From positions 1 to 48,799 of IMG/VR virus record IMGVR_UViG_3300046530_000175: 48,799 nt of DNA; one strand, 5' to 3'. The position numbers and the translations under genes are program-made. Positions 173 to 47,361 of the stretch are shown here, one piece after another (the stretch's first letter is position 1; every line of letters starts with the position of its first letter). Below the pieces are notes generated by a model. It ran no database searches and had not been told where the DNA came from. It saw nothing but the letters and a program-made list of their open reading frames with translations. This stretch comes from a virus.

Positions 173-1447
173 CTATCTCACATTAACCACCAGCAAGTCG
201 TCCCAACGCGTTGTGTAGCGCGGCGAAAGCATTTCCCGCTTCATCCGCCACTTCTGCTGGATACCCTGCCCTGCAAAATACAGCGCCCCTCTCCCGTTCT
301 TATGGTTGAGATGGTCGAGTACTTCCATCAACGCAGCACTGTTCTGTCGTGGTGCATTGTCGTCAAACAGATTTAGCTGAGCAACGCCCTGGCTAAAGAA
401 GTCAGCCAACATGATCCCCGCTTTCTGATAGCGGTACCCATCCTTCCAGATTTTATCGAGACAACGCATTCCGGCAGCAATAATGTCGCGAGTGTCCTGC
501 GTTGGCGTCATTAACTTCACTGCGCCCTGATTGCCGTAATATGGCTCATTCAGCGCGAACGGCGATGTTTTGATGAATACGGAGATGTAACGACAGAACT
601 GATGTTCACCCCGCAGCTTCTCCCCGGCGCGCGCCGCATAACTACAGATGGCCTGGCGCATTTGTTCGTATTCAGTCACCCGATCACCGAATGAGCGCGA
701 ACAGACGATTTCCTGTTTGATGGGTGCAAACTCCTCAAGCCCAAGGCAGGGTTCGCCGCGCAGCTCCCGAACGGTACGCTCGAGTACCACGTTGAAGTGC
801 TTCCTGATAAACCGGATATCCGTGTCGGCCAGTTGTAGAACCGTCTGGATCCCCATCACTTCGAGTTTTTTGGACATGCGACGCCCGACGCCCCACACCT
901 CATCAACCGGGAAATACGCCATCAGTTTGCGTTGCTTTTCAACATTCGAAAGGTCAACCACACCACCCGTTTGCCGCTGCCATTTCTTTGCAGCATGGTT
1001 AGCGAGCTTTGCCAGAGTCTTTGTCTGCGCAATACCGACACCAACGGTTAGCCTGGTGCGCAACAAAATAGCCTCCCTGATTTCCCTGCCAAAATCCTCC
1101 AGATTGCGACAGTTCCGCACACCAGTCAGGTCGCAGAAGGCTTCATCGATACTGTAAATTTCGCAGCGCGGCGACATCTCCTCGAGTGTGGTCATCACCC
1201 GGTCAGACATATCGGCGTACAGCTCGTAATTGGAGCTGAAGCAGACAACGCCGAACCTCCGGAACAAATCCTTTTGCTTGAAAAACGGGTCACCCATTTT
1301 AACGCCAATGGCTTTCGCTTCTGCACTCCGGGCAATAACACAACCGTCGTTGTTTGAGAGCACGACGACAGGCCTGCCATGTAAATCAGGCCTGAATACC
1401 GTTTCACAACTGGCATAGAACGAATTGACATCCACTAGGGCAAACAT
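173..1447 (-). CDS. umuC: UmuC, catalytic subunit of error-prone DNA polymerase V
   Basis: This is a Y-family DNA polymerase that, with two processed UmuD' subunits, bypasses DNA lesions during the SOS response at the cost of mutations. The 424 residues match the usual UmuC length (about 422). Family landmarks are visible: the N-terminal [14 protein letters not shown] with the first metal-binding Asp, the palm motif YSIDEAF near residue 99, and an NLFD peptide near the C-terminus that resembles a beta-clamp-binding motif. The ATG lies 2 bases after the umuD stop, so the two are co-transcribed from the LexA-controlled promoter upstream of umuD. Prophage and plasmid copies of umuDC are common. 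Only 172 bases of flank remain, so whether this pair belongs to the phage or the host cannot be settled here. Confidence 0.97.
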
Positions 1448-1449
1448 GG

Positions 1450-1869
1450 TCAGCCCATCGATTTGATGACGAACGTGACCACGCCCAGGATGTTAAGCGT
1501 GCCCTCACTGTCGATCAGTATTGGGGAATAAGCTCTATTCATCGGGTTAAGCTGGACAGTCGGATAAAGCTGCAGACGCTTCACAGTAAACTCACCATCA
1601 ACCGAGGCAATCACGACATCGTTATGCCTGGCGGTACGCGAACAATCCACTGACAACAGGTCTCCATCGCTAATCCCACCGTCAATCATCGAGTCCCCTG
1701 ACGCTCTGACAAAATATGTACTGCTCGGATGAGGGGCGATTAACTCACTAATATCTAAGCGCTCTTCGACATAGTCCTGAGCAGGAGACGGGAAACCGCA
1801 CTTCACCGGGTCGCTAAACAGCGGAATAGTGATAACTTCGCGCAAAAATACGGGCTTGATGATATTCAT
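1450..1869 (-). CDS. umuD: UmuD, self-cleaving subunit of DNA polymerase V
   Basis: This LexA-fold S24 peptidase is converted to active UmuD' by RecA-stimulated self-cleavage, and UmuD'2 then joins UmuC. All key residues are at the classical positions: cleavage site Cys24-Gly25, catalytic Ser60 (in ASGDSM) and Lys97 (in FTVKR). Length is 139 residues, identical to the E. coli protein. The ATG at 1869 lies just downstream of a near-consensus LexA box at 1887-1906, which explains its regulation. umuC follows after 2 bases. Confidence 0.97.
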
Positions 1870-30336: not shown

Positions 30337-30651
30337 CTAAACCTCTTGTATTTCTAAGATCTCATGCACAGTTTGCCTGAATCGCTCCTCCTCCAACTCA
30401 ACACCAATACCCTGACGTCCCAGCTGCAATGCTGCTTTAATTGTCGAACCAGACCCCATGAAGAAGTCTGCCACGACATCGCCGGGTTTACTGCTGGCGT
30501 TAATAATCTGCCGCAGCATGTCGGCTGGCTTTTCACATGGGTGCTTACCTGGATAGAACTGGACGGGCTTGTGCTTCCATACGTCGGTGTACGGCACAGA
30601 CACGGAAATAGCAAACGGGCGCCGAAGTGCTTTGAACTCTCCAGTATTCAC
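30337..30651 (-). pseudogene. C-terminal remnant of a phage DNA methyltransferase
   Basis: The remaining 104 residues correspond to the end of an N6/N4-type DNA methylase: PYTDVWKHKPVQFYPGKHPCEKP and the SAM-binding loop DFFMGSGSTIKAALQLG. The catalytic (D/N)PP(Y/W) motif and the target-recognition region are absent and are not found upstream, where 62 bases separate it from a terminator. The likely history is deletion of the 5' part when accessory genes were exchanged. A GTG at 30651 could start a short product, but it should be inactive. Confidence 0.75.
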
Positions 30652-30712: not shown

Positions 30713-31378
30713 TCAATTTAACTGTTCAAGCCTATAAGTATGCTCTTCAATAACAACTCTTATACCGGCTTCTATTGTTTCGAATAATGCGTAGAAATGT
30801 TCTGGCTTATAACCATCTGGATACAAATTTGGATTATTTAAAATATGTAGAATATCAGACATAGCTTTAGTAATTATTTCATACTTACTATCATTCTTAT
30901 CCAATAACAATCTTATATTCCAGCGTTCCATAGACATTAGTTGGAAAAAATTCAACTGCGCATTATGTAGCTCGATAAATTCCCCAACCAATTTAGGGTC
31001 GGATTTTCGTTTGATTATTATTGCATTTGCTTGATTTGCTGCACTTTGGGCATACGCTAAAAAGTTAGCGGAACAATGTCTTAATTCTTCAATTTGCTTT
31101 TTTCTGTTCGTTATTACATGTTCTACAGTTAACGTCATGCGTGTAATACGTTCTTGTTGTTCTAATTGCTGTTGCATTGAGCGGTTATTTGCCCGCATTG
31201 CCAACCAGGCAACAAATGCAGGTATGCCGCCAGCTACAAGTGCAGTGACAAATGTCTCAAAATTCCATCCTTTATCAGGTAATTCAACAAACACTCTCGG
31301 AATTTTGTTTAATAAAACATCAGCGTGATAGAAAATATCCTCGCTGCGAAGCGGGAATGGTGTGCCTTGCCAAGTCAT
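30713..31378 (-). CDS. Single-pass membrane protein with coiled coil
   Basis: The protein has 221 residues. One membrane helix (about 42-63, FVTALVAGGIPAFVAWLAM) is followed by a coiled coil (NNRSMQQQLEQQERITRM) and a helical cytoplasmic domain with acidic and aromatic residues to the end (EHFYALFETIEAGIRVVIEE). A strong ribosome site (AGGAGGT) precedes the ATG at 31378 and a terminator follows, so it is a complete single-gene unit. AT-rich composition and location between Q and lysis mark it as cargo. No family recognised; superinfection exclusion is one possibility. Confidence 0.7.
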   Translation of the reverse strand: MTWQGTPFPLRSEDIFYHADVLLNKIPRVFVELPDKGWNFETFVTALVAGGIPAFVAWLAMRANNRSMQQQLEQQERITRMTLTVEHVITNRKKQIEELRHCSANFLAYAQSAANQANAIIIKRKSDPKLVGEFIELHNAQLNFFQLMSMERWNIRLLLDKNDSKYEIITKAMSDILHILNNPNLYPDGYKPEHFYALFETIEAGIRVVIEEHTYRLEQLN

Positions 31379-31872
31379 AATACCTCCTTTTTGAAAGAGG
31401 TTATCTTAACCAGATTAGTTGCCGATTTCTAAAAGAATGTAACGGAATTTGAATCAGTATCCATGGAGACTTTATCAAGTACACCGTAACCATTTAAATC
31501 ATCTACTACCTATTACTTCGTTACAAATCGCTTAAATGACGGAGCCTGCAACAGTATCTTTACTTGACTCGGCAAGTATTTTATAGCTGAAACTGTACTG
31601 TATAGAAACCATCAATCAAAAATGGATACCAGATCTAAATCAAACGCCCTAGCACCTTTAAATGGGTGAAAGGAAAAACAGTTTCAAAAGGAATAATTTA
31701 TACTTTTGGCAGTATATCACAAAACACTGAAATCATGGCATAAAGTGTCGGGTTTTGCAATATGCTCATTTTCAATTTATCTTCGAAACCTCCCTGCCTC
31801 CTTACATGGTCCATTAATTTTCAAACCTAATTTAATTGATTAACATTCACAATAATTCTTCCAGGGAGATGA

Positions 31873-32022
31873 ATGTCTTACATAAACAAGGAAAGTATAA
31901 AAAACAACCAAGATCGCGCGCATGCCTCAGAAAGCTACAGATTGTCTTGCTCCGAACTTAGTAATGGTAAGCCCCGCCCTTATACACGCTTTAAACCCCA
32001 TTACTATCAGCAGTTATTGTAA
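31873..32022 (+). CDS. Possible 49-residue small protein
   Basis: The ORF starts at the ATG at 31873, 4 bases after GGGAG (ribosome site), and ends 11 bases before a good terminator. The product is polar and basic (MSYINKESIKNNQDRAHASE at the start, PRPYTRFKPHYYQQLL at the end) with no membrane segment. A ribosome site plus a terminator argue for a real transcript, but conservation is unknown and the gene is too short to judge by composition. It might also be a small RNA. Confidence 0.4.
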   Translation: MSYINKESIKNNQDRAHASESYRLSCSELSNGKPRPYTRFKPHYYQQLL

Positions 32023-32033
32023 GTTTTCAATTT

Positions 32034-32051
32034 GGCTTTTGAAGCCTTTTT
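32034..32051 (+). terminator. Rho-independent terminator after the small ORF
   Basis: GGCTT-TTG-AAGCC is followed by T5, directly after the 31873-32022 ORF. A second stem (TTCAGCA/TGCTGAA) follows within 20 bases. It insulates the GTPase promoter from upstream transcription. Confidence 0.7.
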
Positions 32052-32162
32052 CAGCATGTCAATGCTGAAACCACGAACAAATTAAAACAAAGTAAAAACA
32101 TTAACTTAATAATTTCAATTGGTTAGCGCGCACTCGCACTAACTATTATTGATGATTCTTTA

Positions 32163-32190
32163 TTGTCAAAAAAAGTTAAAGTGCTAGTAT
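32163..32190 (+). promoter_or_regulatory. Sigma70-type promoter of the GTPase operon
   Basis: TTGTCA at 32163-32168 and TAGTAT at 32185-32190 are separated by 16 bases. Predicted transcription start is near 32197, which places the ATG at 32230 inside the transcript and rules out the upstream GTG at 32194 as a likely start. Confidence 0.75.
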
Positions 32191-32229
32191 AGGGTGAAAA
32201 ATTTACTAGAATATGAAAGGGTTTCACTA

Positions 32230-33036
32230 ATGGCATTAAACGAAGTTGCTACAGCGTTAAAAGTGGGAGGGGCAGTCTATCGCAACAAAGGTGTGATTTT
32301 TGAACTAATGACTAAAGCTGTCATAAAATTTAAAGATACAGATATTGTTGTTACTGGGGCATCAGGAGCAGGAAAAAGTCACCTAATTGATTACATTCAA
32401 AGTGAAATTAAAAAAAAGAAACAAAACAATCCGGATGTTTCAGCAAAAGTAGAACATACCATCATTCATTTGAATGACGATTGGTTCCCCAAAAAAATAA
32501 GTGTAATACCTGGACAAGCATTCCAGGCACGAGAAAAAGCATTTATTGATTTAGTGAGTGGGAACGCAAAACTTAAAGGTATAATACATGTTGTTGATTG
32601 GGGTTATACCAAGCCAAAAATGAAAGATTTTGAGGCATATATTAAAGGTCAAAACATTGATACAATTGATGCATTAAGGGAGGAAAACCTCCGAGAAGAG
32701 ATAAATTATTTAAACTCTTTAGCAGATGCGATTGAGAAAAAGAATGAAGAGATCAATTGGTTTATCATAGTCCTTAATAAAATTGACCTCTTTGATACAG
32801 GAAGAGCAGTTAATTACTACCACAACAACAAGATGTTCAACAAAGCTATAGCAAGAGTTTTATCAAAAGTTAAAAATGTCAGTCACAAGAAAAACTTAAT
32901 ACAGCCTTTTTGTTGTGTGAGAGAGGATTTTATATTTAACAGTGAGTCTGTGAAGACAACTCTTTGCAGCCAAAATGAACAACTTAATTATTTTACTGAC
33001 TTCCTTAAATCAATTGAGTTAAACCTAGCGGAGTAA
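32230..33036 (+). CDS. Small GTPase-like protein, first gene of a two-gene cargo module
   Basis: This 268-residue cytosolic protein has GTPase motifs: P-loop GASGAGKS (43-50), a PGQ-type G3 segment (VIPGQ, 92-96, followed by an Arg and then GIIHVVDWG, as in MglA-like and other small GTPases), and the guanine-specifying NKID (183-186). The rest is helical and lysine-rich. I prefer the ATG at 32230 (AAAGGG 9 bases upstream, after the promoter) over the GTG at 32194. It is AT-rich, opposite in direction to all flanking phage genes, and followed 4 bases later by a membrane protein gene. Hydrolysis has not been shown; it could bind GTP as a switch recruited to the membrane partner. Confidence 0.78.
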   Translation: MALNEVATALKVGGAVYRNKGVIFELMTKAVIKFKDTDIVVTGASGAGKSHLIDYIQSEIKKKKQNNPDVSAKVEHTIIHLNDDWFPKKISVIPGQAFQAREKAFIDLVSGNAKLKGIIHVVDWGYTKPKMKDFEAYIKGQNIDTIDALREENLREEINYLNSLADAIEKKNEEINWFIIVLNKIDLFDTGRAVNYYHNNKMFNKAIARVLSKVKNVSHKKNLIQPFCCVREDFIFNSESVKTTLCSQNEQLNYFTDFLKSIELNLAE

Positions 33037-33040
33037 CATT

Positions 33041-33559
33041 ATGGGTGATTTTGACACTAAAAAATCTGGAAATCCTTACTCTAGCTTTGGAAATAATAGT
33101 TCTTTCATGCGCCCAGTGAATGTCCATGATTCTTTGTCACATATTAACCAATTGATCGACATGGCTGAAGAGTCAAAAAATAAAATCACTAACCTTTATA
33201 AACAGTTGAAAAAGATGCGTGAGCGCATGTTAATTTTAATTGCTTTTGCATACATATGTATCGGTTTTTTTGTTGCATTTATTAGTGAGCAGTATAAGTC
33301 TCTTTCTAACCTTCCTTCTTCGTATACAATTCTAACTTTAGTGATTGTTATATTAATTCTAGCTTTCGCACTTTTCACTTATCGAAATCAACGAAGTGCT
33401 ATCCGTCTTCAAATAGCAATGGAACGGGGTATACTAAAAGATATTCTCGGACTTGTATTTGACATAAGAAAGCTTTTAGACATTTCAGCCCCAACAGGCT
33501 CTCTCTGGTTGGAATTTAAAGTAGTTGATATGCGTCTGAGAAGACTGGAGTTTTATTAA
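33041..33559 (+). CDS. Two-helix membrane partner of the GTPase
   Basis: The protein has 172 residues. A polar N-terminus (1-30) and an amphipathic coiled coil (about 30-60, HINQLIDMAEESKNKITNLYKQLKKMRERM) lead into two membrane helices (63-81 and 94-113). A basic cytoplasmic helix domain follows (YRNQRSAIRLQIAMERGILKDILGLVFDIRKLL). Both ends should face the cytoplasm, where they could meet the GTPase. The gene starts 4 bases after the GTPase stop and ends before a bidirectional terminator, so the pair is one transcription unit. No known family was recognised. Confidence 0.75.
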   Translation: MGDFDTKKSGNPYSSFGNNSSFMRPVNVHDSLSHINQLIDMAEESKNKITNLYKQLKKMRERMLILIAFAYICIGFFVAFISEQYKSLSNLPSSYTILTLVIVILILAFALFTYRNQRSAIRLQIAMERGILKDILGLVFDIRKLLDISAPTGSLWLEFKVVDMRLRRLEFY

Positions 33560-33605
33560 ACTCTGGAGAATCTATATCAAACAGCATCTCTAAGCCTTAA
33601 AAAAT

Positions 33606-33628
33606 GCCCGCGAATACGCGGGCGTTTT
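33606..33628. terminator. Bidirectional terminator between the GTPase operon and Q
   Basis: A perfect 7-bp GC stem (GCCCGCG and CGCGGGC, loop AATA) has a T-run on the plus side (GTTTTC) and six A's on the left, giving T6 on the minus strand. It lies between convergent genes and would stop both the cargo operon and the transcript entering from Q. Confidence 0.92.
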
Positions 33629-33692
33629 CGATCTAGATAATTTATCAATAGGGTTGACTTATGCATCGTTCGAAGCAGGAATTCTTTCAGAA

Positions 33693-34373
33693 TTAGTTAT
33701 TATCTGTTCTCCTTAGTAATTTCTGTCCAATGCAAACTAGTCCTTTAATATCCAAACCGCATGCAAGAGCTTTAAATTCCCTCCACGGTTCAGCATACGT
33801 CCGGTACCACGTATCACGGTGAATACAGAGAAAGTTAGCTAGGGCTGTTGCTGCGTATTCTTTGTATAGTTCGTTATTGTTTCTCGACGCTACTTCCTGA
33901 GCCGCCAGCCAAACTAGAGAGATCAAACGTTGTTTAACACGGTTCTGGAGCTTTGCTCCCGACAGTCCTATCTCGTAGTTATCCCATATATAACGGCATA
34001 TCTCAATTTGATACCCAAAATGGAGATCAAAACCGTAACAGTATTTGATCCATGCTTGTTGGCTGGCGCCCAGTTCCAAAACAGCTCTTCGCCATGCGCA
34101 TGAAGCGAAGGCATTATCGCTGATCGGGGGCATAGGAAGAAGGCGGCTACGTGTTTCCATGACATACAAGGTGCTATTTTCTGCCTTAACTCGCCTTACC
34201 CCCCCGCGCCCGTTGTCAAGTTCTACCATATGAATTGGCCTGCGAGTATTTTTGTCCCTATCAGCTGGCGGGCACTCAGCAAACGCCTCCAATTGCCCTT
34301 TTGTGCCTCCCGAATCGTCCACAAGCGCAATACGGAGATTTACACGCACATAATCTAGTAGCTGAGTGTTCAT
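33693..34373 (-). CDS. Late antiterminator Q
   Basis: This 226-residue protein of the phage antitermination Q family (lambdoid type, not lambda's own subtype) has FASCAWRRAVLELGASQQAWIKYCYGFDLHFG in the middle and DTWYRTYAEPWREFKALACGLD near the end. Q modifies RNA polymerase at the late promoter so that it reads through terminators, here those at 29957, 16604 and 12413. It overlaps the upstream DUF1364 gene by 4 bases and lies between the nin-type genes and the cargo locus, its usual position. Confidence 0.88.
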   Translation of the reverse strand: MNTQLLDYVRVNLRIALVDDSGGTKGQLEAFAECPPADRDKNTRRPIHMVELDNGRGGVRRVKAENSTLYVMETRSRLLPMPPISDNAFASCAWRRAVLELGASQQAWIKYCYGFDLHFGYQIEICRYIWDNYEIGLSGAKLQNRVKQRLISLVWLAAQEVASRNNNELYKEYAATALANFLCIHRDTWYRTYAEPWREFKALACGLDIKGLVCIGQKLLRRTDNN

Positions 34374-45964: not shown

Positions 45965-46480
45965 ATGCTAAGCTTTCTTGCTAAATATATCCTTACAGCA
46001 AGCGCAGTGGCCCCTGTATGCATCACCCTATCTTTTGTTGCTTGGCTCAATGGCAGCAAAATTTACGCCATTGGAAGTTTAATTCTAGCTCTACTAAGTT
46101 TTTTCTTGTGCTGGTTGACATTACACACAGCTAAAAAATGTGTAAGTGAAACTCATGTAAATTTAACTTCTCTTACCCCCGCAAACAAGGAGATAACAAA
46201 TTATTTCTTGGCTTATCTATTTCCGTTGATAACTGATGACAAATTAATAGAAAACGTCTGGCTGGCTGTGTTTTTTTATATCAGCTTATTTATATATATT
46301 GGTTTTTCGGGTAGTTATTCATTTAATCCGCTCATGTCTTTTTTCGGCTATAAATTTTATGAGGCAGAAGATGACACCGCAGTTTCTTTTGTTCTGATCT
46401 CAAAAAAAGCAATACAGAGAGGAGATATTAAGGGATTAAAGGTAATACAACTCACCGACCATACCTTCATAAAAATTTAA
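45965..46480 (+). CDS. kwaA: KwaA, membrane component of a Kiwa defence system
   Basis: This 171-residue polytopic membrane protein has helices at about 7-28 and 33-54, a hydrophobic stretch at 78-90 and a helix at 97-115, then a soluble tail (VSFVLISKKAIQRGDIKGLKVIQL). Kiwa KwaA is described as a four-helix membrane protein encoded directly before a DUF4868 protein, as here. In Kiwa it senses phage at the envelope and works with KwaB to stop phage replication and transcription. GGGAGG lies 5 bases before the ATG. It is 8 bases from kwaB and is AT-rich compared with the phage. Identification rests largely on pairing with KwaB and topology. Confidence 0.77.
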   Translation: MLSFLAKYILTASAVAPVCITLSFVAWLNGSKIYAIGSLILALLSFFLCWLTLHTAKKCVSETHVNLTSLTPANKEITNYFLAYLFPLITDDKLIENVWLAVFFYISLFIYIGFSGSYSFNPLMSFFGYKFYEAEDDTAVSFVLISKKAIQRGDIKGLKVIQLTDHTFIKI

Positions 46481-46488
46481 GGTCTACC

Positions 46489-47361
46489 ATGGAACTGTTT
46501 GCTCTCACCGAAGATGATATAACACCTGACATTGTTAAAATCTGCTTAGAGAAAAAAACCGCAGGTAAAGTAGATGTATTATTTGAAGAAATGATCTCAT
46601 CATTTAATGAAACTTGCCCAGACTCTACTAGTTACACTGCTGATTATAAACTTGAGAAAAATGAGCATTTTAGCATTGATGACTTTGATCAGCATCACGA
46701 ACTGCGGAAAGCGCTGATCACCCCTAAAGGAATAGCCACACTGGATATCAATGATATTGGCCTCGATAAGATAAAAGCATTATTTATTGGCTCCGTGGAT
46801 GGTGATAAAATATACATCCAAAAATTTGACAAAAGCCAGGTAATCACAACAACAAATAGTTTTCTTTTTTTCGATAACACCAAAACCTTCGCGGCACCTG
46901 ATCATAACGGTTTAACTATTGGCCCTAAATTGACCGCGATAATTGAAGGAAAAAAAATTCTTTTTAGAAATTTCAATAATCTGAGAAGGATCTTCAATAT
47001 GGATAAATATTTTCGTGATGCAACAAATAGTGAACTTGATTCATTCCAGCAAAGCGAAGTATTTTATTGTGAGGATGGATTCAAACTTTCGGACTTTGAT
47101 GATACGGTCATTCGCCGCAAAGTGACTTTACTTAATATGTCCGGTGTTTTGCAGGAGCATACTATTGGTACGCTACAGGAAGCTGCTAGTGAATTAAACC
47201 ACCCGCTTGATATTATGAAATTTGAAAATAAAGATAGGATTAAACTCCCGAACAACAAAAAAGACGTAAAGCTCTTACTCAGTTTTCTCGATTCAGACAT
47301 ATACATTTCTGCAATCAATGGAGTGAAGTATCGTTCTAACTCTAAAACTAGACTCATCTAA
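46489..47361 (+). CDS. kwaB: KwaB, DUF4868 effector of a Kiwa defence system
   Basis: This 290-residue soluble protein shows the DUF4868 pattern. It has an N-terminal part with an acidic stretch, a central beta-rich part (LFIGSVDGDKIYIQKF, FFDNTKTFAAPDHNGLTIGPKLTAII), then KKILFRNFNNLRRIFNMDKYFRDATNSELDSF. The end, LLLSFLDSDIYISAINGVKYRSNSKTRLI, is diagnostic of the family. KwaB is the DNA-binding partner of KwaA in Kiwa. It is at the short end of the family's length. No known Kiwa third gene follows. Confidence 0.85.
   Translation: MELFALTEDDITPDIVKICLEKKTAGKVDVLFEEMISSFNETCPDSTSYTADYKLEKNEHFSIDDFDQHHELRKALITPKGIATLDINDIGLDKIKALFIGSVDGDKIYIQKFDKSQVITTTNSFLFFDNTKTFAAPDHNGLTIGPKLTAIIEGKKILFRNFNNLRRIFNMDKYFRDATNSELDSFQQSEVFYCEDGFKLSDFDDTVIRRKVTLLNMSGVLQEHTIGTLQEAASELNHPLDIMKFENKDRIKLPNNKKDVKLLLSFLDSDIYISAINGVKYRSNSKTRLI

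What the first reader, a model, noticed from the sequence alone, without database searches (positions are those of the whole stretch)
32163..33628. Undescribed-looking GTPase plus two-helix membrane protein module in the phage cargo locus
Seen: a complete two-gene unit with its own promoter (32163-32190), a GTPase with GASGAGKS, VIPGQ and NKID motifs, a partner starting 4 bases later with a coiled coil and two membrane helices, and a bidirectional terminator. It is AT-rich and runs against all flanking phage genes. It lies between Q and the lysis genes, the site where lambdoid phages carry conversion genes such as toxins. Expression in the lysogen independent of the repressor is implied. I know of no named defence system with this pair; a membrane-linked GTPase sensing infection, or a superinfection-exclusion device, is an inference.
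Basis: partly seen in the sequence, partly recalled or inferred. Interest (0 to 1): 0.77.

Follow-up and report, generated by a model that had tools for sequence, protein, structure and literature searches.

The report
GTPase–membrane protein pair in a prophage
A bacterial virus carries a self-contained pair of genes, a GTP-driven switch protein and a small membrane protein, that also sits side by side in four bacterial phyla but matches no family or defence library searched; it is probably a switchable membrane device protecting the infected cell from other viruses, though this is untested.

Summary
Window 32230-33036 encodes a TRAFAC-type GTPase; four bases later 33041-33559 encodes a two-helix membrane protein. 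The pair runs against the flanking phage genes, is AT-rich, has a plausible promoter and ends at a two-way terminator. Neither protein passes a Pfam or NCBIfam cut-off or has a credible PADLOC or PHROGs match.

Twelve further loci (Bacteroidota, Streptomyces and relatives, Planctomycetota, Armatimonadota) carry a two-helix membrane gene at the GTPase stop codon; three came from a later search not selected for pairing. A profile of Bacteroidota partners finds the phage partner (E 7e-12). One clade of Actinomycetota lacks the partner.

Related phages show that the pair lies in about 1.9 kb of extra DNA between antiterminator gene Q and a conserved element that directly follows Q elsewhere. The same phage carries a complete Kiwa defence system (KwaA, KwaB).

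Best reading: a mobile two-gene module, probably anti-phage, in which the GTPase gates a membrane effector. That the module is real and undescribed in these libraries is well supported; the defence role is inferred from context; the mechanism is a hypothesis.

The parts
32163..32190 (+). Candidate promoter of the module, TTGTCA-16-TAGTAT with extended -10 TG
   Evidence: placement only, hits no commoner than in shuffles
32230..33036 (+). GTPase, 268 aa; GASGAGKS, VIPGQ, NKID
   Evidence: fold
33041..33559 (+). Two-helix membrane partner, 172 aa; both ends predicted cytoplasmic; conserved C-terminal RLxRxxF tail
33606..33623 (.). Two-way terminator, strong for leftward (Q) transcripts, weaker for the module
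31773..33692 (.). Extra DNA relative to related phages L072 and L074, holding the module
31704..31772 (-). Conserved element that directly follows Q in L072 and L074; presumed late promoter/Q-site region
   Evidence: function inferred from position
33693..34373 (-). Q antiterminator gene flanking the module

Best explanation
It is a mobile two-gene module carried here as prophage cargo and expressed in the lysogen from its own promoter. A small-G-domain GTPase acts as the switch and docks on the cytoplasmic helices of its two-helix membrane partner. Infection by another phage shifts the nucleotide state of the GTPase, which changes the partner at the inner membrane (opening, clustering or blocking DNA entry), so that the infection fails or the cell shuts down. 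Shown by sequence: both genes, the conserved pairing, the G motifs, the membrane hairpin, and the extra DNA at a variable phage cargo site. Inferred: physical interaction, lysogen expression, defence role. Hypothesis only: direction of signalling and the membrane effect.
For: Pairing in 12 other loci with stop-to-start gaps of a few bases, confirmed in three of three loci from a later unselected search. Partner homology: Bacteroidota profile finds the window partner at E 7e-12 and Planctomycetota and Armatimonadota partners next, of 7587 ORFs. G domain fold. Cytoplasmic helices and outer loop of only 6-13 residues, so no external sensor domain. Cargo behaviour: extra DNA at the Q site, different cargo in sister phages, AT-rich and rare, a plasmid copy beside transposases. 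Complete Kiwa in the same phage.
Against: No functional data. No known defence gene was shown beside the pair in its bacterial loci (not examined systematically), so defence rests mainly on this one phage. No second viral copy in IMG/VR or INPHARED. Streptomyces partners are linked by position and topology, not by sequence. The partner model has low depth (7 sequences, pTM 0.52). A partnerless GTPase clade exists, so the GTPase can act alone. G3 lacks its Asp, so GTP hydrolysis is uncertain.
Confidence: 0.45

Rival explanations
1. Membrane sensor with GTPase effector, in the manner of Kiwa: the membrane protein detects phage attachment or DNA entry and activates the GTPase, which blocks the phage in the cytoplasm.
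For: Kiwa works in this order, a membrane sensor bound to a cytoplasmic effector (PMC12904381), and is present in the same phage. The partner sits in the membrane where entry could be sensed.
Against: The partner has almost no outer loop; a G domain is usually a switch rather than an effector.
Confidence: 0.2
2. Non-defensive lysogenic conversion: a membrane-anchored GTPase that changes envelope, growth or stress behaviour of the host to the benefit of the prophage.
For: GTPase relatives without partner are common in Nocardioidaceae and Intrasporangiaceae chromosomes, which suggests a cellular role for the family there.
Against: The paired form is rare, patchy and AT-rich and lies in a cargo site of a phage with Kiwa.
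Confidence: 0.2
3. Toxin-antitoxin-like pair: the membrane protein is toxic when free and the GTPase holds it in check, stabilising the prophage or plasmid.
For: Two small overlapping or adjacent genes, mobile elements, plasmid copy.
Against: The GTPase is large for an antitoxin and conserves nucleotide-binding motifs; no toxin family matches.
Confidence: 0.1
4. A diverged member of the predicted DO-GTPase/GAP1 conflict systems with a SLATT-type 2TM effector.
For: Same logic of a TRAFAC GTPase with a 2TM protein (PMC7159879).
Against: No DO-GTPase, GAP1 or SLATT model matched; no acidic residue in the G3/Walker B strand, where DO-GTPases have a conserved Glu.
Confidence: 0.05

Closest known systems
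DO-GTPase/GAP1 predicted conflict systems with SLATT 2TM effectors (Kaur et al. 2020, PMC7159879)
   Same: TRAFAC GTPase in a gene neighbourhood with a 2TM protein; proposed switch near the membrane
   Different: No GAP1, no GASH, no zinc ribbon, no Walker B Glu; only two genes; no SLATT profile match
Kiwa (KwaA/KwaB)
   Same: Two genes, one membrane protein and one cytoplasmic protein; present in the same phage
   Different: KwaB (DUF4868) binds DNA and is no GTPase; membrane proteins unrelated by profile
Arf, Rag-like and GIMAP small GTPases
   Same: G-domain fold (Foldseek E 1e-6 to 1e-7); all act at membranes (established knowledge)
   Different: 12-16% identity; G3 Asp lost; Arf-like amphipathic N-terminal helix not supported
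Partnerless GTPases of Nocardioides, Janibacter and Intrasporangium (annotated as 'GTPase domain-containing protein' in the Georgenia plasmid copy)
   Same: Same GTPase family with PG[QED] in G3
   Different: No membrane partner; one well-supported clade
PdpSau of S. aureus prophages (PMC10127798)
   Same: Prophage accessory gene next to lysis genes, membrane-acting, anti-phage
   Different: Single gene, no GTPase; Gram-positive; no sequence link tested

Membership tests
TRAFAC GTPase class | G1 P-loop GxxxxGK[ST] | tested here: met
   GASGAGKS; G43, G48, K49 invariant
TRAFAC GTPase class | G4 [NT]KxD | tested here: met
   NKID; K184 and D186 invariant
TRAFAC GTPase class | G3 DxxG | tested here: not met
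   VIPGQ: Gly and Gln kept, Asp absent in the paired family; distant relatives have DTxGQ. Filed by fold and other motifs, with this exception
TRAFAC GTPase class | G-domain fold | tested here: met
   Model pTM 0.81, Arf/Rag/GIMAP hits
DO-GTPase/GAP1 systems | Conserved Glu in Walker B | tested here: not met
   No acidic residue in the motif (feature)
DO-GTPase/GAP1 systems | GAP1 protein encoded alongside | tested here: not met
   No GAP1 match in the partner proteins or the window neighbours scanned
SLATT 2TM effector | Match to a SLATT profile | tested here: not met
   No SLATT model for any of 9 partners; DUF4231 only E 0.26
SLATT 2TM effector | Two TM helices with cytoplasmic helical extensions | tested here: met
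   a weak feature shared by many proteins
Phage moron (accessory cargo gene) | Extra gene(s) absent from sister phages at the same site | tested here: met
Phage moron (accessory cargo gene) | Own promoter, expressed in the lysogen | not testable with these tools
   Plausible promoter and terminator only
Anti-phage defence system | Protects against phages | not testable with these tools
   Context only

The most novel reading that the evidence does not exclude
An undescribed, phylum-crossing anti-phage system of only two proteins, in which a GTPase with an Asp-less G3 motif gates a two-helix membrane effector: a minimal bacterial counterpart of membrane-acting immune GTPases.
Probability: 0.4. 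Interest if true: 0.82.

Novelty: new variant of a known kind. Interest (0 to 1): 0.62.

Why it matters
If the inference holds, this is a compact GTPase-switched membrane defence shared by an enterobacterial-type prophage, Bacteroidota, Streptomyces, Planctomycetota and Armatimonadota, yet not represented as a family in Pfam, NCBIfam, PHROGs or PADLOC. Two genes in about 1.3 kb make it easy to test, and the clade with a lone GTPase is a natural comparison for what the membrane partner adds.

Tried and rejected
Close relatives by single-protein scans of IMG/VR and GTDB genomes, tblastn in INPHARED phages, blastn in E. coli genomes: none; profile scans of IMG/VR: none, so no second viral copy was found. 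Arf-like amphipathic N-terminal helix: not above shuffles (window p 0.36). SLATT or DO-GTPase membership: no profile support. Partner against solved structures by sequence: nothing; by fold: nothing better than E 0.26. A GTPase-partner fusion for a complex model was translated, but the mixed alignment stacked partners on the GTPase, so it was not folded and both folding jobs went to single proteins. RNA families and tRNAs near the module: none. Flanking direct repeats marking the insertion: none convincing. L019, 'paired' by the automatic rule, is an unrelated 3-TM ORF and not counted.

Full report
What is there. The window is a whole IMG/VR virus record of 48,799 bp. It has an integrase closest to Escherichia prophage integrases (58% identity to PHB10, 53% to Rac-SA53), a repressor-like regulator, a holin and an Rz spanin, and a Q antiterminator at 33693-34373(-). 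Between Q and the holin, on the opposite strand, lie 32230-33036, a GTPase of 268 aa, and 33041-33559, a membrane protein of 172 aa. ATG 32230 is preferred over GTG 32194 as the start: it has a Shine-Dalgarno-like GAAAGGG, fits the homologues and leaves room for a leader after the -10 box.

Regulatory frame. TTGTCA-16-TAGTAT with an extended TG at 32163-32190 is well placed, but such matches are no commoner than in shuffles, so the promoter is plausible, not shown. The 7-GC-pair stem at 33606-33623 is a strong terminator for leftward transcripts and a weaker one for the module.

Families. Neither protein passes a Pfam or NCBIfam cut-off; PADLOC and PHROGs give only weak partial hits. Across ten members of the GTPase family MMR_HSR1 is the commonest weak hit (7 of 10, best E 4e-6). 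AlphaFold2 with 30 sequences gives pLDDT 81 and pTM 0.81, and Foldseek finds Arf, Rag-like and GIMAP G domains at E 1e-6 to 1e-7. The protein is therefore a TRAFAC GTPase. Its G3 motif is VIPGQ: the Asp is missing, the Gln is kept. Distant Cytophagales relatives have D-T-x-G-Q, so the Asp was probably lost.

Co-occurrence. tblastn to plasmids found a Hymenobacter plasmid gene (27% identity, E 3e-20) whose next gene, 4 bases on, encodes a two-TM protein with BLASTP similarity to the window partner. A profile scan of GTDB genomes gave 67 loci. The paired set is the window, L002, L003, L005, L006, L007, L008, L009, L035 and L010, where the partner is broken by an assembly gap. The rest are Actinomycetota without partner; the 13 sampled for the tree form one clade (100/100). 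A later search of Actinomycetes gave three further strong hits not chosen for pairing, and all three have a two-TM partner at -4 to +1 bases. A profile from the four Bacteroidota partners ranks the window, Planctomycetota and Armatimonadota partners next among 7587 ORFs (E 7e-12, 0.0026, 0.022). Streptomyces partners are not reached by sequence but share position, topology and an RxRLSxFP tail. The distant Cytophagales GTPases L079-L082 are also directly followed by membrane proteins of other topology.

Mobility. The paired form is rare: 1 of 396 Bacteroidota, 1 of 246 Planctomycetota and 3 of 150 genomes of the Streptomyces genus sample, each count including the seed genome. It is AT-rich against its neighbours (Rufibacter 0.29-0.35 against about 0.56-0.60). 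One copy is on a plasmid beside transposases. The Rufibacter copy stands at the end of a run of phage-like genes (one PHROG match at E 3e-40, one Hoc-like), which only suggests a prophage remnant.

The site. Four IMG/VR relatives with Q 57-68% identical were read; none shows the pair here. The two longer records, L072 and L074, have no profile match anywhere and carry other genes at the site: L072 an opposite-strand DUF2441 ORF, L074 other ORFs. A 60-70 bp element follows Q directly in L072 (85% identity, E 3e-12) and L074 (72%), but lies 1.92 kb from Q in the window, beyond the module. So 31773-33692 is extra DNA at this site. If the element is the late promoter region, an inference from its position, late transcription starts beyond the module and does not cross it.

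Context for function. The same phage carries a complete Kiwa system at 45965-47361 (KwaA E 2e-73, KwaB E 1e-99). This makes it a carrier of a known defence system and raises, without proving, the chance that the Q-site module is defensive as well.

Mechanism. The partner is modelled as two long helices (28-87, 93-148) joined by a short turn (pTM 0.52, seven sequences, a low-depth model). Outer flanks are net basic in most members and the outer loop is 6-13 residues, so the soluble helices should face the cytoplasm. With no periplasmic domain the partner looks more like an effector or anchor than a receptor, and the GTPase like the switch. This order is a hypothesis. The nearest published logic is the predicted DO-GTPase/GAP1 systems with SLATT pore-like effectors (PMC7159879), whose defining features were tested and not met. 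Kiwa, with its sensor in the membrane and effector in the cytoplasm (PMC12904381), gives the main rival order.

Verdict. A real and conserved module undescribed in the libraries searched; defence is likely but untested; mechanism open. The literature search covers open-access full text only, so a description elsewhere cannot be excluded.

Noticed in passing
window 45965-47361 (+): Complete Kiwa defence system: KwaA 45965-46480 (PADLOC E 2e-73) and KwaB 46489-47361 (E 1e-99), AT-rich, next to the integrase gene.
   Followed up: partly
window 31704-31772 (-), L072:8666-8725, L074:8675-8740: Conserved 60-70 bp element directly after Q in related phages, displaced by 1.92 kb in the window; in L072 a GC stem with T run follows. 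Probably the late promoter and Q site.
   Followed up: partly
window 30337-30651 (-): C-terminal fragment of an N6/N4 DNA methylase (PF01555, E 8e-25), profile positions 138-219 of 221 only, so a truncated remnant.
   Followed up: no
window 173-1869 (-): umuC/umuD-like error-prone polymerase genes at the left end, 73% DNA identity to Salmonella phage vB_SosS_Oslo.
   Followed up: no
L079-L082: A deeper Cytophagales branch of the GTPase family with canonical DTxGQ, each copy directly followed by a membrane protein of different topology; the GTPase-membrane pairing may be older than this family.
   Followed up: partly
L011-L071 (most): Partnerless GTPases of the same family are widespread in Nocardioides, Janibacter and Intrasporangium; function unknown.
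   Followed up: partly
L072:9014-9553 (-): A different cargo gene (DUF2441, PF10386 E 3e-9) sits at the same Q-lysis site, also on the strand opposite to Q; possibly another uncharacterised moron.
   Followed up: no
window 30713-31378 (-), L074:12124-12888 (+): Similar-looking proteins (both start M[TA]WQG[TI]PF) of no Pfam family lie shortly before the holin in the window and in L074.
   Followed up: no
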